This document shows positions 3,970 through 52,922 of a stretch of DNA of 64,000 nt, one piece after another. Position numbers and translations under genes: made by a program. The notes beneath the pieces are model-generated. The model was not told the DNA's origin, did no database searches, and was given only the letters and a program-made list of their open reading frames with translations. Origin of the DNA: Limnovirga soli (GTDB lineage Bacteria > Bacteroidota > Bacteroidia > Chitinophagales > Chitinophagaceae); the NCBI RefSeq assembly GCF_013106755.1, contig NZ_WHPF01000015.1:1-64000 (forward strand), read 5' to 3'. Numbering within the stretch: the first letter of the stretch is position 1; the number at the start of each line of letters is the position of its first letter.

Positions 3970-4053
3970 GCAGCAACAAGTGTATTCAGCAGAAAAAACG
4001 CAATACTAATATTAGGACAATAAAAAATGTCAGCTAAAATATAATTTTACAAA

Positions 4054-4689
4054 ATGGCAATAAAAGTAATTGTATATGACGATAATAAAGACCGGCGTGA
4101 AAGCCTGAAAATATTGATTAATATTCAATCAGAAATGGCATGCACAGGCATTTTCAAAGATTGCCTTAATGTGTGGGACGATATTGTGAATACCCAGCCC
4201 GACGTAATATTAATGGATATAGACATGCCAGACATGAGTGGTATTGAGGGCGTGAAGATGATACGTAAACAGTATCCTGATGTTAAGATAATCATGCAAA
4301 CTGTTTTTGATGATACCGATAAAATATTTGCAGCTATCGAAGCCGGCGCTGATGGGTATTTTCTTAAAACAACACCCACCGCAAAAATTATCGAAGGCAT
4401 TAAAGAAGTAATGGAAGGTGGTGCCCCCATGACAGCCACCGTAGCCAAAAAAGTGCTGGCAAAATGCAAGGAGCAACCCAAAAATGTAAAAGAAGTTTTT
4501 GAGTTAAACGAACAGGAACGTACCATTTTAAACCATCTGGTAAATGGCCTTAGTTATAAAATGATTGCCGATACTACTGACATGACTTATACCACCGTAA
4601 ACATGTATATAAAACGCATTTACAAAAAATTGCAGGTACATTCCGCCACAGAAGCCATTTCAAAAGCCATTCGCAATAATATCGTATAA
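4054..4689 (+). CDS. LuxR/NarL-family response regulator
   Basis: The 211-residue protein has an N-terminal receiver domain (about 3-120) with acidic pocket DD at 9-10, phospho-acceptor Asp55 in ILMDIDMPDMSG and the conserved Lys in FLKTT. A C-terminal LuxR-type helix-turn-helix follows (about 148-207: LNEQERTILNHLVNGLSYK, then TTVNMYIKRIYKKLQVHSA). It is the natural partner of the kinase ending at 3885, because HisKA_3 kinases pair with NarL/LuxR regulators. Its target genes cannot be read from the sequence. Confidence 0.95.
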   Translation: MAIKVIVYDDNKDRRESLKILINIQSEMACTGIFKDCLNVWDDIVNTQPDVILMDIDMPDMSGIEGVKMIRKQYPDVKIIMQTVFDDTDKIFAAIEAGADGYFLKTTPTAKIIEGIKEVMEGGAPMTATVAKKVLAKCKEQPKNVKEVFELNEQERTILNHLVNGLSYKMIADTTDMTYTTVNMYIKRIYKKLQVHSATEAISKAIRNNIV

Positions 4690-4755
4690 CAATAACTGGT
4701 TTTTTTGGTACCGGGGCTTATATTGCAGTATTGTTTAAATACTAAATTTACAGCC

Positions 4756-6873
4756 ATGAAAAAGGTACTGCCTTTACTATTGGTTCTTTTTTATATGAAT
4801 ACATATGCCCAACAACAAGCTGCATTTACCGGCAACTATCCTGCAACAAAAAAAGTAAACCAAACAGATGACTTTTTTGGTACAACAGTCGCCGACCCCT
4901 ACCGCTGGCTGGAAAACGATACTGCTGCAGATACCAAAGTCTGGGTACAAGAACAAAATACAGTTACACAGGCCTATTTAAATAAAATTCCTTTTAGGGA
5001 TAAAATAAAAAACAGGTTAACCCAATTATGGAATTATGAAAGGTTCTCTGCCCCGTTTACAGAGGGCGCTTTTACCTATTTCTACAAAAACAATGGCCTG
5101 CAAAACCAGGCAGTTTTATACCGTCAAACAGAAGCAGGCACCCCTGAAGTCTTTCTTGACCCTAACACTTTCTCAACAGATGGCACCATTGCCTTATCTG
5201 GCATAGAATTTACCCATGATGGTTCGCTGGCGGCATATACTATTAGCATTGGTGGCAGCGATTGGAATAAACTGATGGTGATTAACACTACCACTAAACA
5301 ACTGCTTGATGATACACTGGAAGTAAAATTTAGCGGTATAGCGTGGGCAGGTAACCAGGGGTTTTATTATAGCACTTACGATAAACCTGCCGACGGCAGT
5401 ATTCTTAGCGGACTTACCAGCCAGCACAAACTGATGTATCATCAACTGGGCACCAAACAATCGGATGATGTGCTGATATTTGGGGGTGCGCTTACTCCGC
5501 GCCGTTATATTGGCGCCTATGTAACCGAAAATCAGGAATGGCTGGTAATTACTGCTGCCGAAGCTACTTATGGCAATGAGTTATATATTAAATCGCTGGT
5601 TAAAAAAGATGCGCCTATAGTACCCATAGTAACAGGTTATGCTACCGAACCCTATGTGGTTTATGCCAACCAGGATTTATTATACATACTTACCAATGAA
5701 AATGCACCCAATAAAAAACTGGTTATTGCACCGGCAGCCACACCAACACCTAACCATTGGAAAGAACTGATAGCCGAGACAGCCTTTCCATTATCAGTGA
5801 CTACCTGCGGGGGTAAACTATTTGCCCAATACCTTAAAGATGCAGTTTCCCTGGTAATTCAATACAACCTGGATGGTACCAAAGAAAAAGAAATACCATT
5901 ACCCGGCTTAGGTACTGCCAGCGGTTTTAGCGGTAAAAAAACCGAGCACCAGCTGTATTTTAGTTTTACCAGCTATATATATCCGCCCACTATTTTTAGC
6001 TACGATATTGCCAAAGCAACATCAGTAGTATATAAAAAATCCAATGTGCAGTTTAATGCTGCAGATTATGAAAGCCGGCAGGTAATGTATCCATCTGCCG
6101 ATGGCACTAAAATACCTATGATTATCACCTGTAAAAAAGGTACGGTATTAAACGGGAAAAACCCCACCCAACTATATGGTTATGGCGGTTTTGGTGTTAG
6201 CCTTACGCCAGCATTTAGTGTATCTAATCTAGTGTTTATGGAGAATGGCGGCGTGTATGCCGTTGCCAATTTACGTGGCGGTGGCGAGTATGGCGATGCC
6301 TGGCATATTGCCGGCACCAAAATGCAAAAACAAAATGTATTTAACGATTTTATAGCCGCTGCTGAATATTTAATTAAAGAACAATATACCAGTCCGGCAT
6401 ACCTTGCCATTTCCGGGGGGAGCAATGGAGGTTTACTGGTTGGAGCCTGTATGACACAAAGACCCGAGTTATTTCGCGTTTGCCTTCCGGCGGTGGGCGT
6501 TATGGATATGCTGCGCTATCATAAATTTACTGCCGGCGCAGGCTGGGCATACGATTATGGCACCGCAGATGATAGCAAGGAAATGTTTGATTACCTGTAC
6601 AAATATTCTCCGGTACAAAACCTGCGGCCGGGTACCTGTTACCCTGCCACCATGGTAACCACCGCCGATCATGATGACCGGGTGGTGCCTGCACACTCAT
6701 TTAAATTTGCGGCAGGTTTACAGGCAGCACAATCCTGCAATAATGCCACTCTAATTAGAATAGAAAGCAATGCGGGCCATGGTGCAGGTAAACCTACTTC
6801 TAAAACCATTGAAGAAATTACTGATAAGCTGAGTTTTATATTTTGGAATATGGGTATTGATTACAACCATTAA
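4756..6873 (+). CDS. Prolyl oligopeptidase (S9A family)
   Basis: Start chosen at ATG 4756 because a signal peptide (MKKVLPLLLVLFYMNTYAQ) begins there; an in-frame upstream start at 4705 would only add 17 non-conserved residues. The 705-residue protein has an N-terminal beta-propeller with the family motif DPYRWLEND and a C-terminal alpha/beta-hydrolase domain. The triad is visible as Ser556 (SGGSNGG), the Asp of DHDDR (638-642) and His675 (AGHGAG). It cleaves short proline-containing peptides after proline, here in the periplasm. Length matches the usual 690-720 residues. It stands alone between repeat copies 2 and 3. Confidence 0.95.
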   Translation: MKKVLPLLLVLFYMNTYAQQQAAFTGNYPATKKVNQTDDFFGTTVADPYRWLENDTAADTKVWVQEQNTVTQAYLNKIPFRDKIKNRLTQLWNYERFSAPFTEGAFTYFYKNNGLQNQAVLYRQTEAGTPEVFLDPNTFSTDGTIALSGIEFTHDGSLAAYTISIGGSDWNKLMVINTTTKQLLDDTLEVKFSGIAWAGNQGFYYSTYDKPADGSILSGLTSQHKLMYHQLGTKQSDDVLIFGGALTPRRYIGAYVTENQEWLVITAAEATYGNELYIKSLVKKDAPIVPIVTGYATEPYVVYANQDLLYILTNENAPNKKLVIAPAATPTPNHWKELIAETAFPLSVTTCGGKLFAQYLKDAVSLVIQYNLDGTKEKEIPLPGLGTASGFSGKKTEHQLYFSFTSYIYPPTIFSYDIAKATSVVYKKSNVQFNAADYESRQVMYPSADGTKIPMIITCKKGTVLNGKNPTQLYGYGGFGVSLTPAFSVSNLVFMENGGVYAVANLRGGGEYGDAWHIAGTKMQKQNVFNDFIAAAEYLIKEQYTSPAYLAISGGSNGGLLVGACMTQRPELFRVCLPAVGVMDMLRYHKFTAGAGWAYDYGTADDSKEMFDYLYKYSPVQNLRPGTCYPATMVTTADHDDRVVPAHSFKFAAGLQAAQSCNNATLIRIESNAGHGAGKPTSKTIEEITDKLSFIFWNMGIDYNH

Positions 6874-46513: not shown

Positions 46514-46807
46514 ATGAAAAAAGTAGACCTGAATGCATTTAGTGATATAGAAAAAGATAGGATTGTAGAAATGGCATGGGAAGACAGAACCACTTTTGAT
46601 GCCATAAAAGCACAGTTTGGCATTTCGCAGGGTGAAGTGGAAAAACTTATGCGCAAACAACTTACCAGTAGCGGTTTTAAACGCTGGCGCAAAAGGGTTT
46701 CATCGGGGGTGGGCGTTAAACATGCCAATAAAGCTGTTGCCGGAATGTTACGGTTTAAATGCAACAGACAAAGAACCATTAGCATGAATAAAATAGCCAA
46801 GAGATGA
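46514..46807 (+). CDS. DUF2805 (TIGR03643-type) small protein
   Basis: The 97-residue basic protein matches DUF2805: DIEKDRIVEMAWEDRTTFDA, FGISQGEVEKLMRKQL, SSGFKRWRKRVSS. The middle looks like a helix-turn-helix. Such proteins often sit beside cryptochrome/photolyase genes, as here: the next gene starts inside its stop codon (ATGA overlap at 46804-46807). Exact role unknown. Confidence 0.88.
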   Translation: MKKVDLNAFSDIEKDRIVEMAWEDRTTFDAIKAQFGISQGEVEKLMRKQLTSSGFKRWRKRVSSGVGVKHANKAVAGMLRFKCNRQRTISMNKIAKR

Positions 46808-47889
46808 TTGTTGAAACGAGCTATAAAAAGATATTAGAAAAAATTGAGGCGGCGGATGTGATTCGATATGCCGGCAGCAGAAATTATATTGATGGCGCTG
46901 TTACTTATTTATCGCCTTATATTTCAAGGGGTGTTATTAGCACCCGGCAGGTATTGGAAACTGTTGTAAGCGCTGGTTTTGCACCAAATACTATAGAAAA
47001 ATTTATACAGGAACTGGCATGGAGAGATTATTGGCAACAACTTTGGATTAGCTATGGCAACCGTATTGATGAGGATCTGAAACATACACAACCAAAATCT
47101 GAAAGATGGGGTATACCTGCGAATATTGTACAAGCCAGCACAGGCATTACGGCTATTGACAATGGTATTGAAGCCCTGTATTCAAACGGTTATATACACA
47201 ACCATATTAGAATGTATATTGCCTCTATGGCCTGCAATGTTGCCAGGTGCCACTGGAAAATACCGGCGCATTGGATGTACTATCATTTGCTGGACGCCGA
47301 CTGGGCTAGTAACGCCCTTAGCTGGCAATGGGTTTGCGGTGCCAACAGCAATAAATTATACTATGCCAATCAGGAAAATATAAATAAGTACTGCTATACC
47401 AATCAGCGCCAAACAATACTGGATGTAGATTATGAGCAGTTTGGTCAGTTAGCTATTCCTGAATTATTAAATAATACCATTTCGCCCATTTTTACTACGC
47501 CATTGCCGCAAACAGTTGCGCCAGTTATTAAACCTGAATTGCCAACTTTGATTTATAATTTTTATAACCTTGACCCAACCTGGCGAAATGAGGATAATGC
47601 AAACAGAATATTATTGCTCGAACCTTCTGTTTTTAAAAAATATCCCGTTTCAGAAAAGAGTATTGCATTTTGTATGGCATTGGCAAAAGAGAATATCCCT
47701 GATATACAAATTTGGGTAGCCGAATTTGCCGATTTAAAGGCGATAGTACCAGGAGCAATTTATTTTAAGGAACACCCGCTAAACAAGTACGCCGGGCATG
47801 AAGATGCCCGTGCCTGGCTCACAAACGTAAAAGGTGCATATCCATCGTTTTTTGCATATTGGAAAAAATGCAAAAAGGAGTTGTATTAA
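46804..47889 (+). CDS. Photolyase/cryptochrome FAD-domain protein with a C-terminal alpha/beta segment
   Basis: The 361-residue protein begins directly with the photolyase FAD-binding helical domain (about 1-205: FIQELAWRDYWQQLWISYG, NGYIHNHIRMYIASMACNVA, HLLDADWASNALSWQWVCGA). The N-terminal antenna domain that normally precedes it is missing. After a linker, residues about 245-361 (ILLLEPSVFKKYPVSEKS, ALAKENIPDIQIWVAEF) look like an alpha/beta domain, giving FAD-domain-first order. It probably repairs UV lesions or senses blue light. It overlaps the DUF2805 gene by 4 bases. Confidence 0.82.
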   Translation: MIVETSYKKILEKIEAADVIRYAGSRNYIDGAVTYLSPYISRGVISTRQVLETVVSAGFAPNTIEKFIQELAWRDYWQQLWISYGNRIDEDLKHTQPKSERWGIPANIVQASTGITAIDNGIEALYSNGYIHNHIRMYIASMACNVARCHWKIPAHWMYYHLLDADWASNALSWQWVCGANSNKLYYANQENINKYCYTNQRQTILDVDYEQFGQLAIPELLNNTISPIFTTPLPQTVAPVIKPELPTLIYNFYNLDPTWRNEDNANRILLLEPSVFKKYPVSEKSIAFCMALAKENIPDIQIWVAEFADLKAIVPGAIYFKEHPLNKYAGHEDARAWLTNVKGAYPSFFAYWKKCKKELY

Positions 47890-47949
47890 GGTTCCAATAG
47901 GTACCATCCAAAAACAATTCAATCATCAAAAAAATAGGGTGTAATAAAA

Positions 47950-49437
47950 ATGCAAAAAGTGAATATCATTTTCCCACACCAGCTATTTGAGGATAGTCCG
48001 CTTTTTTCTGAGACCGGAAACTTCTGCCTGGTGGAGGAATTTTTATTTTTCAGGCAGTATAATTTTCACAAGCAAAAAATAGCTTTTCAGCGGGCCAGTA
48101 TGAAATACTATGAAAACTATTTATGCAGCAAAGGATGCTCAGTACAATATATACAGGCTCACGAGGCACTAGCTGATATAAGATTATTATTGGCAAATTT
48201 GCAACAAACAGGTATAAGTGCTATTACTATTATTGATCCGGTAGATGATTGGCTATTAAAAAGAATAAGTAAAAGCTGCCAAAAATTAAACATACAGTTA
48301 AGGATATTGGAATCTCCTATGTTTTTAAATACCCGCGAAACATTGTCGGCATTTTTTAAACCCCATAAAAAGAAGTTTTTTCAAACTGAATTTTATAAGC
48401 AGGAAAGAATAAACAGAAAAATATTAATTGATGCAGTTGGAAAACCGGTTGGCGGGCAATGGAGTTTTGATGAAGAGAACCGAAAAAAGTATCCTAAGGG
48501 TAAGGCTGTAATTAAATTTAACCTGCCCGCAACGAATAACTATTATTTAGAAGCTATAGCCTATACCAATCAATACTTTCCAAATAATGTTGGAATAATT
48601 GGAGATGCCATACAATACCCCATTGGATTTGAGGAGAGCAAACAATGGCTGTACACATTTGTACAAACCCGTTTGGCAGCATTTGGAGATTATGAGGATG
48701 CCATTTTGCAAAAAGAGATATTGATACACCATAGCTTACTTAGTCCGCTGTTAAATATAGGTATGCTTACTCCGCAACAAGTAACCACTATTATATTGCA
48801 AACAGCAAATACCAATTGCATTCCCATCAATTCATTAGAAGGCTTTATACGGCAAATTATTGGATGGCGGGAGTTTATTAGAGGCGTATATATTACCAAA
48901 GGCACCGCAGAAAGAGCCAGTAATTTTTGGGGCTTTACCCGAAAAATACCAGCCAGCTTTTATAAAGGAACAACAGGTATTTTACCCATAGACGAAACCA
49001 TTAGTAAGGTATTGGCAACTGGTTATTGTCATCATATTGAACGACTAATGGTGTTGGGCAACTTTATGCTATTATGCGAGTTTGATCCCAACGAAGTTTA
49101 CCGTTGGTTTATGGAGTTATTTATTGATGCCTACGATTGGGTAATGGTACCAAATGTGTACGGCATGAGTCAGTTTGCCGATGGTGGGCTTATGGCCACC
49201 AAGCCATATATAAGCGGAAGTAATTATCTAATGAAAATGAGCGACTACCCCAAAGGAGACTGGCAGGCAATCTGGGATGCATTATTTTGGCGCTTCTTAG
49301 ATAAACATCGCCATTTTTTTCTTCAAAATCCAAGGCTGGGTATGTTGGTAAAAACCTTTGATAAATGGGATGACAATAAAAGAAAATCAATTCACCAGCA
49401 AGCCAATAATTTTCTATCAACGCTCACGGTAACATAG
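47950..49437 (+). CDS. PhrB/FeS-BCP-type photolyase lacking the iron-sulfur cysteines
   Basis: The 495-residue protein has the DPRP/photolyase-related N-terminal domain (IIFPHQLFEDSPLF, then FHKQKIAFQRASMKYY) and a FAD domain with motifs of prokaryotic (6-4) photolyases: IRQIIGWREFIRGVY, YCHHIERLMVLGNFMLL, FIDAYDWVMVPNVYGMSQFA. In PhrB the sequence after SDY is a CxxC pair followed by ACPFN. Here it is P434-K-G-D437 running straight into LFW after a deletion of about ten residues, with no Cys in the last 95 residues. So the 4Fe-4S cluster cannot form in the usual way. It is 60 bp after the other photolyase gene. Confidence 0.9.
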   Translation: MQKVNIIFPHQLFEDSPLFSETGNFCLVEEFLFFRQYNFHKQKIAFQRASMKYYENYLCSKGCSVQYIQAHEALADIRLLLANLQQTGISAITIIDPVDDWLLKRISKSCQKLNIQLRILESPMFLNTRETLSAFFKPHKKKFFQTEFYKQERINRKILIDAVGKPVGGQWSFDEENRKKYPKGKAVIKFNLPATNNYYLEAIAYTNQYFPNNVGIIGDAIQYPIGFEESKQWLYTFVQTRLAAFGDYEDAILQKEILIHHSLLSPLLNIGMLTPQQVTTIILQTANTNCIPINSLEGFIRQIIGWREFIRGVYITKGTAERASNFWGFTRKIPASFYKGTTGILPIDETISKVLATGYCHHIERLMVLGNFMLLCEFDPNEVYRWFMELFIDAYDWVMVPNVYGMSQFADGGLMATKPYISGSNYLMKMSDYPKGDWQAIWDALFWRFLDKHRHFFLQNPRLGMLVKTFDKWDDNKRKSIHQQANNFLSTLTVT

Positions 49438-51464: not shown

Positions 51465-52751
51465 CTAGCCACCAATTTCACCGCCGCCGTTGCCACCGCC
51501 ACCGTTACCGCCGCCGCCGTTTCCACCGCCACCATTTCCACCGCCACCATGATGGCCACTATCATCGGCTGTATCACCTACACCATCATTATCATCGTCT
51601 TTATCATCAACATCAAGTACACCATCATTGTCATCGTCAGCATCAAGATCATCGCTAACACCATCGTTATCATCATCGGTATCCACATCATTACCCATAT
51701 CGTCATTATCAAAATCATTATCACTATTGTCGTCTAATGTATCAGAAATACCATCATTATCATCATCGGTATCTACATCATCATTAATACCATCATTATC
51801 ATCATCCAGATCAGATTTATCAGCAATTCTATCGCCATCATCATCCTTATCCAGATTATTGTTTATACCATCATCATCCAAATCGTTATCCCCATCACCG
51901 CCATTAATAGAGTTATGGTCGCTGTCAAAATTATCGTTCATGCCATCATTGTCATCATCTGCATCATCAGTATCTAAAATACCATCGTTATCATCATCAA
52001 TATCGTTGGCATCATTTAGGCCATCATTATCATCATCGCTATCACCTAATTCATTTTCCATACCATCGTTATCAAAATCGCTGTCGTTCTCAGTATCAAG
52101 TCTATCACCAATACCATCGTTATCATCATCTTTATCCAAATCATCGGTAACTCCGTCATTGTCATCATCCGTATCTACGTCGTCAGATAAACCGTCATTG
52201 TCATCATCCTTATCTTCTTTGTTAGATACACCATCGTTATCTTCATCATTATCGTTATTGCTGTCAAAGCCATCGTTAATGCCGTCGTTATCATCATCGC
52301 TATCCACATCGTCATTAATGCCATCGTTATCATCATCAAGGTCATTTGCATCACCAACGCCATCATTGTCGTCATCCTTGTCTTTGCTGTTCAATATGCC
52401 ATCGTCGTCACTATCGTTATCGCCAATACCACCTTTAGAATTGTCATGGTCAATATCCATGTTATCATCCAAACCATCATTGTCATCATCACCATCTCTA
52501 AAATCCTGTACGCCATCGTTATCATCATCAATATCGGCTACATCATCAATGCCATCATTATCATCATCGGCATCAGCTACCTCGTTCTCAAGGCCATCAT
52601 TGTCATAATCGTTATCATTTACTTCTTGCAGTGCATTAGCAGTAGTGGTAGATTGTAACGGTGCAGTAACCGGTAAGGTTTGTACTTCTTTGTTGCAGGA
52701 TAGTAATGCTACCATTACTACGGCTGCCATCAGCAGGGATTGTTTTTTCAT
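51465..52751 (-). CDS. Lipoprotein built of thrombospondin type 3-like Asp repeats
   Basis: The start is taken at ATG 52751 (MKKQSLLMAAVVMVALLSCN, lipobox LLSC). The 428-residue mature protein consists almost wholly of repeats with the motif DDDNDG (17 exact, about 7 near copies), typical of thrombospondin type 3 calcium-binding units. It ends with a Gly-rich tail (GGGGNGGGGNGGGGNGG). Two regions share a longer pattern (DNDGLENE/DNDGMENE, then a DHDNS/DHNS segment), which shows internal duplication. It is probably a surface calcium-binding or matrix protein. Confidence 0.88.
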   Translation of the reverse strand: MKKQSLLMAAVVMVALLSCNKEVQTLPVTAPLQSTTTANALQEVNDNDYDNDGLENEVADADDDNDGIDDVADIDDDNDGVQDFRDGDDDNDGLDDNMDIDHDNSKGGIGDNDSDDDGILNSKDKDDDNDGVGDANDLDDDNDGINDDVDSDDDNDGINDGFDSNNDNDEDNDGVSNKEDKDDDNDGLSDDVDTDDDNDGVTDDLDKDDDNDGIGDRLDTENDSDFDNDGMENELGDSDDDNDGLNDANDIDDDNDGILDTDDADDDNDGMNDNFDSDHNSINGGDGDNDLDDDGINNNLDKDDDGDRIADKSDLDDDNDGINDDVDTDDDNDGISDTLDDNSDNDFDNDDMGNDVDTDDDNDGVSDDLDADDDNDGVLDVDDKDDDNDGVGDTADDSGHHGGGGNGGGGNGGGGNGGGGNGGGEIGG

Positions 52752-52922
52752 GTTTTGTATCATTTTTTGGTTTGTTAATAAGCCATTTACGCTAAATAAA
52801 CCGGCTCTTAACTCTGTTGCCACCAAAATGCAGAATGTAACCAGTACCTAAAAAAAATCCTGCTACCTGCCTTATATTAAAATTGTTTATGAACCCGTCA
52901 TTTTAAATCTATTAAGCTTTAC

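What the first reader, a model, noticed from the sequence alone, without database searches (positions are those of the whole stretch)
47950..49437. A PhrB/FeS-BCP-type photolyase without iron-sulfur cysteines
In FeS-BCP enzymes a CxxC and an ACPFN cysteine after the SDY motif bind a 4Fe-4S cluster. Here the same place is P434-K-G-D437, the following loop is about ten residues shorter, and no cysteine remains in the last 95 residues, yet FAD and DNA-binding motifs are well conserved. I recall a cluster-less member from marine cyanobacteria, not verified. This one may have lost the cluster independently, which helps to understand what the cluster does.
Basis: partly seen in the sequence, partly recalled or inferred. 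Interest (0 to 1): 0.8.

Follow-up and report, generated by a model that had tools for sequence, protein, structure and literature searches.

The report
Bacterial photolyase lacking its iron-sulfur cluster
This is an intact light-driven DNA-repair enzyme of the prokaryotic (6-4) photolyase family that lacks the iron-sulfur cluster of the best-known members; it is not a one-off loss but one of hundreds of relatives in an already recognised cluster-less branch.

Summary
ORF 47950-49437 (+, 495 aa) is a prokaryotic (6-4) photolyase (PF04244; AlphaFold model matches PhrB at Z 40.8, rmsd 2.4 Å, 482 residues). All four cluster ligands are gone (PhrB C350→P346, C438 and C441 deleted, C454→A440), the loop is 10 residues shorter, and the last cysteine is C376. 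Residues needed for (6-4) repair are kept.

Among 236 homologues, 156 have none of the four ligands, 80 have all four, none is intermediate. Trees built without the ligand loop need a single change (support 100/100), so this protein inherited its state from a large clade (Bacteroidota, Dependentiae, one T4-like phage contig, one large-virus contig). No independent loss is seen. Cluster-less members were already published: PromaPL, "subgroup M", 7% of 464 homologues.

New details: the sharpest fixed differences between the branches lie at the cluster pocket (M348→I, C350→P, C438/C441 deleted, F456→W). The cluster-less gene also tends to sit in a photorepair gene cluster with DUF2805 and a short photolyase-like gene, as in this window.

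Whether the cluster was lost here or gained in the other branch stays open: my outgroup rooting was unreliable. No activity was tested.

The parts
47950..49437 (+). cluster-less prokaryotic (6-4) photolyase, 495 aa: N-terminal DPRP antenna domain (residues 6-217), C-terminal helical FAD/DNA domain
   Evidence: AlphaFold model pLDDT 83.5, best match PhrB Z 40.8
48985..48987 (+). codon of P346, at the position of Fe-S ligand C350 of PhrB
   Evidence: alignment; P in 155 of 156 cluster-less homologues, C in 80 of 80 others
49246..49278 (+). codons of Y433-D443 (YPKGDWQAIWD): remodelled former cluster loop; ligands C438 and C441 deleted, C454 position is A440, F456 position is W442
46804..47889 (+). 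short photolyase-like protein, 361 aa: FAD-binding domain first, further domain behind, no N-terminal antenna domain; probable operon partner
   Evidence: PF03441 9.7e-21; an orthologue stands near the cluster-less gene in 48 of 81 loci, window included
46514..46807 (+). DUF2805 / TIGR03643 protein, overlaps the next gene by 4 bases; probable operon partner of unknown function
   Evidence: PF10985 4.5e-29, TIGR03643 above cut-off; present in 40 of 81 cluster-less loci

Best explanation
The gene encodes a working prokaryotic (6-4) photolyase of the branch that has no 4Fe-4S cluster. It binds FAD, is reduced to FADH- by an aromatic electron relay (W386, with Y338 in place of PhrB W342), takes the (6-4) lesion into the pocket lined by H361/H362, L366, M406, Y420 and Y426, uses the D174/D250 pair for Mg2+, and repairs by photo-induced electron transfer. 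The place of the cluster is taken by a shortened loop and protein side chains (I344, P346, W438, W442, D443), so the cluster is not needed for the fold or the chemistry in this branch. The cluster-less state was inherited with the whole clade, not acquired in this lineage. Shown: ligand absence, conservation, one change on the tree, predicted fold, gene neighbourhood. Inferred: activity, Mg2+ use, electron path and the packing role of the pocket residues.
For: Family, fold and catalytic residues. H366, L370, M410, Y424 and Y430 of PhrB are invariant in both groups, and D179 and D254 too; PMC4619345 shows H366 and Y424 are needed for repair, and PMC12082625 names the matching Asp pair of the Caulobacter enzyme as predicted Mg2+ ligands. 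The 156/80 split without intermediates. One change on trees with the ligand columns removed: 140 rows, SH-aLRT 100; 49 rows, 100/100, in 200 of 200 bootstrap trees. At a 90%/90% threshold the five fixed differences between groups are M348 to I, C350 to P, loss of C438, loss of C441 and F456 to W. One family member per genome in 130 of 131 Bacteroidota genomes, as expected if either form does the same job. Literature: PromaPL is described as a photolyase without cluster (PMC9178010, PMC9426592).
Against: No activity, iron content or spectrum was measured. PMC9426592 predicts that picocyanobacterial members without cluster repair CPDs instead, on the ground that the cluster is missing. In PhrB, ligand mutants were insoluble or not expressed (PMC4619345), so the compensation by loop residues is an assumption. 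The AlphaFold model has low confidence in 172-177 and 394-419, near the FAD/lesion site, possibly because FAD is absent.
Confidence: 0.82

Rival explanations
1. This protein, or its near lineage, lost the cluster independently of other cluster-less photolyases.
For: Cluster-less members also exist in marine cyanobacteria (PMC9178010, PMC9426592), and I could not place those on my tree, so more than one loss in the whole superfamily is possible.
Against: All close relatives in Bacteroidota lack the ligands, and the label changes once on the tree. The loop length and P346/W438/W442 are shared throughout the clade, as expected from common descent.
Confidence: 0.04
2. The protein repairs cyclobutane dimers rather than (6-4) products, or acts as a cryptochrome-like light sensor.
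For: PMC9426592 predicts CPD repair for cluster-less Phr2 of Synechococcus; a relative, CryB, also has regulatory effects (cited in PMC9178010).
Against: The (6-4) signature H361-H362 with L366, M406, Y420 and Y426 is kept, PromaPL is called a (6-4) photolyase, and other photolyase-like proteins that could handle CPDs stand next to it and elsewhere in the genome.
Confidence: 0.12
3. A cluster is still bound through other cysteines, such as C360 and C376, which are common in the clade.
For: C376 is present in 140 and C360 in 105 of 156 cluster-less homologues, and neither is usual in the cluster-bearing group.
Against: Only two conserved cysteines, one of them next to the active-site H361-H362; no third or fourth partner that is as specific to the clade.
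Confidence: 0.02

Closest known systems
Prokaryotic (6-4) photolyases 'subgroup M', incl. Prochlorococcus PromaPL (PMC9178010; Phr2 of PMC9426592)
   Same: PhrB-type two-domain photolyase without the four cluster cysteines
   Different: PromaPL is cyanobacterial; whether the Bacteroidota clade and PromaPL are one branch was not tested here
PhrB (Agrobacterium), CryB (Rhodobacter), SePhrB, Vibrio and Caulobacter FeS-BCPs
   Same: Fold (Z 36-41), FAD and lesion-site residues, Asp pair, Y424 and Y430 equivalents
   Different: They carry C350/C438/C441/C454 and a 4Fe-4S cluster; about 30% identity; W342 is Y338 here, Y460 is F446
Class I, II, III CPD photolyases and DASH cryptochromes
   Same: FAD domain fold (Z up to 24.7)
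   Different: 11-15% identity in the structural alignments; none of them is matched by sequence

Membership tests
Prokaryotic (6-4) photolyase family | DPRP N-terminal domain PF04244 | tested here: met
   E 6.6e-51, 173.7 bits against cut-off 22.1
Prokaryotic (6-4) photolyase family | Residues shown to be needed for repair in PhrB: H366, Y424, also Y430 | tested here: met
   H362, Y420, Y426
Prokaryotic (6-4) photolyase family | Electron relay W342 and W390 of PhrB | tested here: inconclusive
   W390 is W386; W342 is Y338, which is Tyr in 86 and Trp in 53 of 139 cluster-less homologues
Prokaryotic (6-4) photolyase family | Repair of (6-4) photoproducts | not testable with these tools
   needs protein and lesion DNA
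FeS-BCP subtype | Four cysteines that bind a 4Fe-4S cluster | tested here: not met
   P346, deletion, deletion, A440
Cluster-less subgroup M (PMC9178010) | PhrB homologue with none of the four cysteines | tested here: met
Cluster-less subgroup M (PMC9178010) | Groups with PromaPL on a tree | not tested
   no PromaPL sequence was reachable with the tools

The most novel reading that the evidence does not exclude
The cluster-less branch may be the older form and the 4Fe-4S cluster a gain of the PhrB branch, contrary to the usual view that the cluster is ancestral. In Bacteroidota the cluster-less enzyme would then work as part of a photorepair operon with DUF2805, a short FAD-domain photolyase and a flavin-reductase-like protein that keeps the flavins reduced.
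Probability: 0.15. Interest if true: 0.6.

Novelty: new member of a known kind. Interest (0 to 1): 0.3.

Why it matters
The role of the 4Fe-4S cluster in prokaryotic (6-4) photolyases is still called unclear (PMC12082625), and ligand mutants of PhrB cannot be studied because they are insoluble or not expressed (PMC4619345). A large natural clade without the ligands offers the missing comparison: it shows which few positions change together with the cluster and gives a choice of proteins for expression. It also bears on the idea that marine iron shortage drove the loss (recalled from the PromaPL paper, not verified here), since the clade includes genera not restricted to the sea, such as Pedobacter.

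Tried and rejected
Rooting with class I/DASH-like and short photolyases: the outgroup joins the cluster-less side with branch lengths near 10, so saturation or long-branch attraction is likely; I draw no direction from it. Phage records: no match. Plasmid search with the short photolyase-like neighbour gave mainly class I photolyases, so the ligand state of the short photolyase family elsewhere was not settled; the Bacteroidota ones beside this gene lack a conserved four-cysteine set. Considered a frameshift or sequencing error removing the loop: rejected, since the same shortened loop is shared by the cluster-less homologues.

Full report
OBSERVATION. The ORF 47950-49437 on the + strand is open, starts with ATG and gives 495 aa. 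Its N-terminal domain is PF04244 (E 6.6e-51) and a weak PF03441 match lies further on. The sequence hits in the PDB are all prokaryotic (6-4) photolyases and CryB (E 6e-78 to 8e-70). An AlphaFold model (mean pLDDT 83.5, pTM 0.86) matches PhrB with Z 40.8, rmsd 2.4 over 482 residues, while the best structure from any other photolyase class reaches Z 24.7; Foldseek agrees. Aligned with PhrB, the four ligands C350, C438, C441 and C454 become P346, a gap, a gap and A440, and the loop is ten residues shorter. The protein's seven cysteines end at C376 and none is at a ligand position.

CATALYTIC RESIDUES. PhrB H365/H366, L370, W390, M410, Y424 and Y430 are H361/H362, L366, W386, M406, Y420 and Y426 here. 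H366 and Y424 are essential in PhrB (PMC4619345). The Asp pair D179/D254, whose equivalents in the Caulobacter enzyme (D178/D253) are predicted to bind Mg2+ (PMC12082625), is D174/D250 and invariant in all homologues. One departure: W342, an electron relay in PhrB, is Y338; in the cluster-less group it is Tyr in 86 and Trp in 53 sequences. Y460 is F446, which agrees with the statement in PMC4619345 that the 7% of 464 homologues without Y460 also lack the cysteines.

HOW COMMON. In the same family as the window's genome, 41 of 149 genomes had a match, most full-length hits at 51-68% identity and four at 34-36%; those four carry all four cysteines (L155-L158). Of 213 homologues, 139 have none of the ligands and 74 all four. 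With further sequences from the phylum of a TM6/Dependentiae record and from viral contigs the count is 156 to 80, with no intermediate. In Bacteroidota, 130 of 131 genomes with a PF04244 match have just one, and the exception is a contaminated assembly, so the two forms appear to stand in for each other.

ONE CHANGE. With the loop and the C350 column removed, a tree of 140 sequences separates the two states by a single branch with SH-aLRT 100 (drawn). A careful tree of 49 sequences gives 100/100 and one change in all 200 bootstrap trees. The window protein lies well inside the cluster-less part, beside Sphingobacterium-, Pedobacter- and Gillisia-labelled sequences. An independent loss in this lineage is therefore not supported. 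The direction is open: outgroup rooting was unreliable. The published view is that the cluster is ancient (PMC4619345, PMC9649867).

POCKET. Comparing the two groups at 90% conservation in both, the five columns that differ are M348 to I344, C350 to P346, the loss of C438, the loss of C441 and F456 to W442; at looser thresholds N457 to D443 and Y460 to F446 join them along with several columns elsewhere. W438 is present in 154 of 156 cluster-less proteins. So the sharpest fixed differences fall on the cluster site, which fits a protein plug in place of the cluster. The model gives the region 431-450 pLDDT 88-94. That the plug keeps the fold stable is inference; PhrB ligand mutants are insoluble or not expressed (PMC4619345).

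GENE NEIGHBOURHOOD. Upstream and on the same strand lie DUF2805/TIGR03643 (46514-46807) and a short photolyase-like gene (46804-47889) that overlap by 4 bases, then 60 bases to the photolyase. Across 81 cluster-less loci, window included, the short photolyase is present in 48, DUF2805 in 40, a full-length class I/DASH-like photolyase in 46 and a flavin-reductase-like protein in 31; in 20 cluster-bearing Bacteroidota loci the numbers are 1, 2, 8 and 3 (Fisher p 7e-6 and 0.002 for the first two, not significant for the other two). The two sets were sampled by different routes, related genomes are not independent, and several loci are cut by contig ends, so this is an association and not a measure. 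The flavin-reductase assignment rests on two members of that cluster that hit PF01613. The window's genome has one more PF03441 protein on another contig.

COMPARISON WITH WHAT IS KNOWN. Cluster-less prokaryotic (6-4) photolyases are published: PromaPL and subgroup M of 20 sequences (PMC9178010), most picocyanobacterial Phr2 (PMC9426592), 7% of 464 homologues (PMC4619345), and a remark that several orthologues miss the cysteines (PMC12082625). The finding is a new member of that kind. It fails the defining feature of FeS-BCP and passes those of the wider family that could be tested. The extent in Bacteroidota and Dependentiae, the clean split and the pocket signature were not found stated in the passages read here; the papers' supplements were not read.

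Noticed in passing
L219 (IMG/VR contig), 705-2180: A T4-like phage contig (gp32-type ssDNA-binding protein, helicase loader) carries a cluster-less photolyase of this family, 41% identical to the window's.
   Followed up: partly
L220 (IMG/VR contig), 4001-5410: A contig that looks like a large eukaryotic DNA virus (DHFR-thymidylate synthase fusion, NUDIX) carries a cluster-less photolyase of this family.
   Followed up: partly
window 46514-49437: Probable photorepair operon DUF2805 - short photolyase-like - cluster-less photolyase; in Flavobacteria-labelled loci it often also holds DUF2452, a second full-length photolyase and a flavin-reductase-like gene.
   Followed up: partly
Y338 of the window protein: The electron-relay Trp342 of PhrB is Tyr here and in most of the cluster-less branch, although W342F nearly abolished photoreduction in PhrB (PMC4619345).
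   Followed up: partly
C376 and C360 of the window protein: Two cysteines common only in the cluster-less branch (140 and 105 of 156); C360 is next to the active-site histidines; role unknown.
   Followed up: no
L038: A contig binned as TM6/Dependentiae holds a copy 61% identical to the window's, nested among Bacteroidota on the tree: recent transfer or a binning error.
   Followed up: no
window 51465-52826 (-): Long acidic protein (about 450 aa) built of DDDNDG-type repeats, resembling calcium-binding repeat proteins.
   Followed up: no
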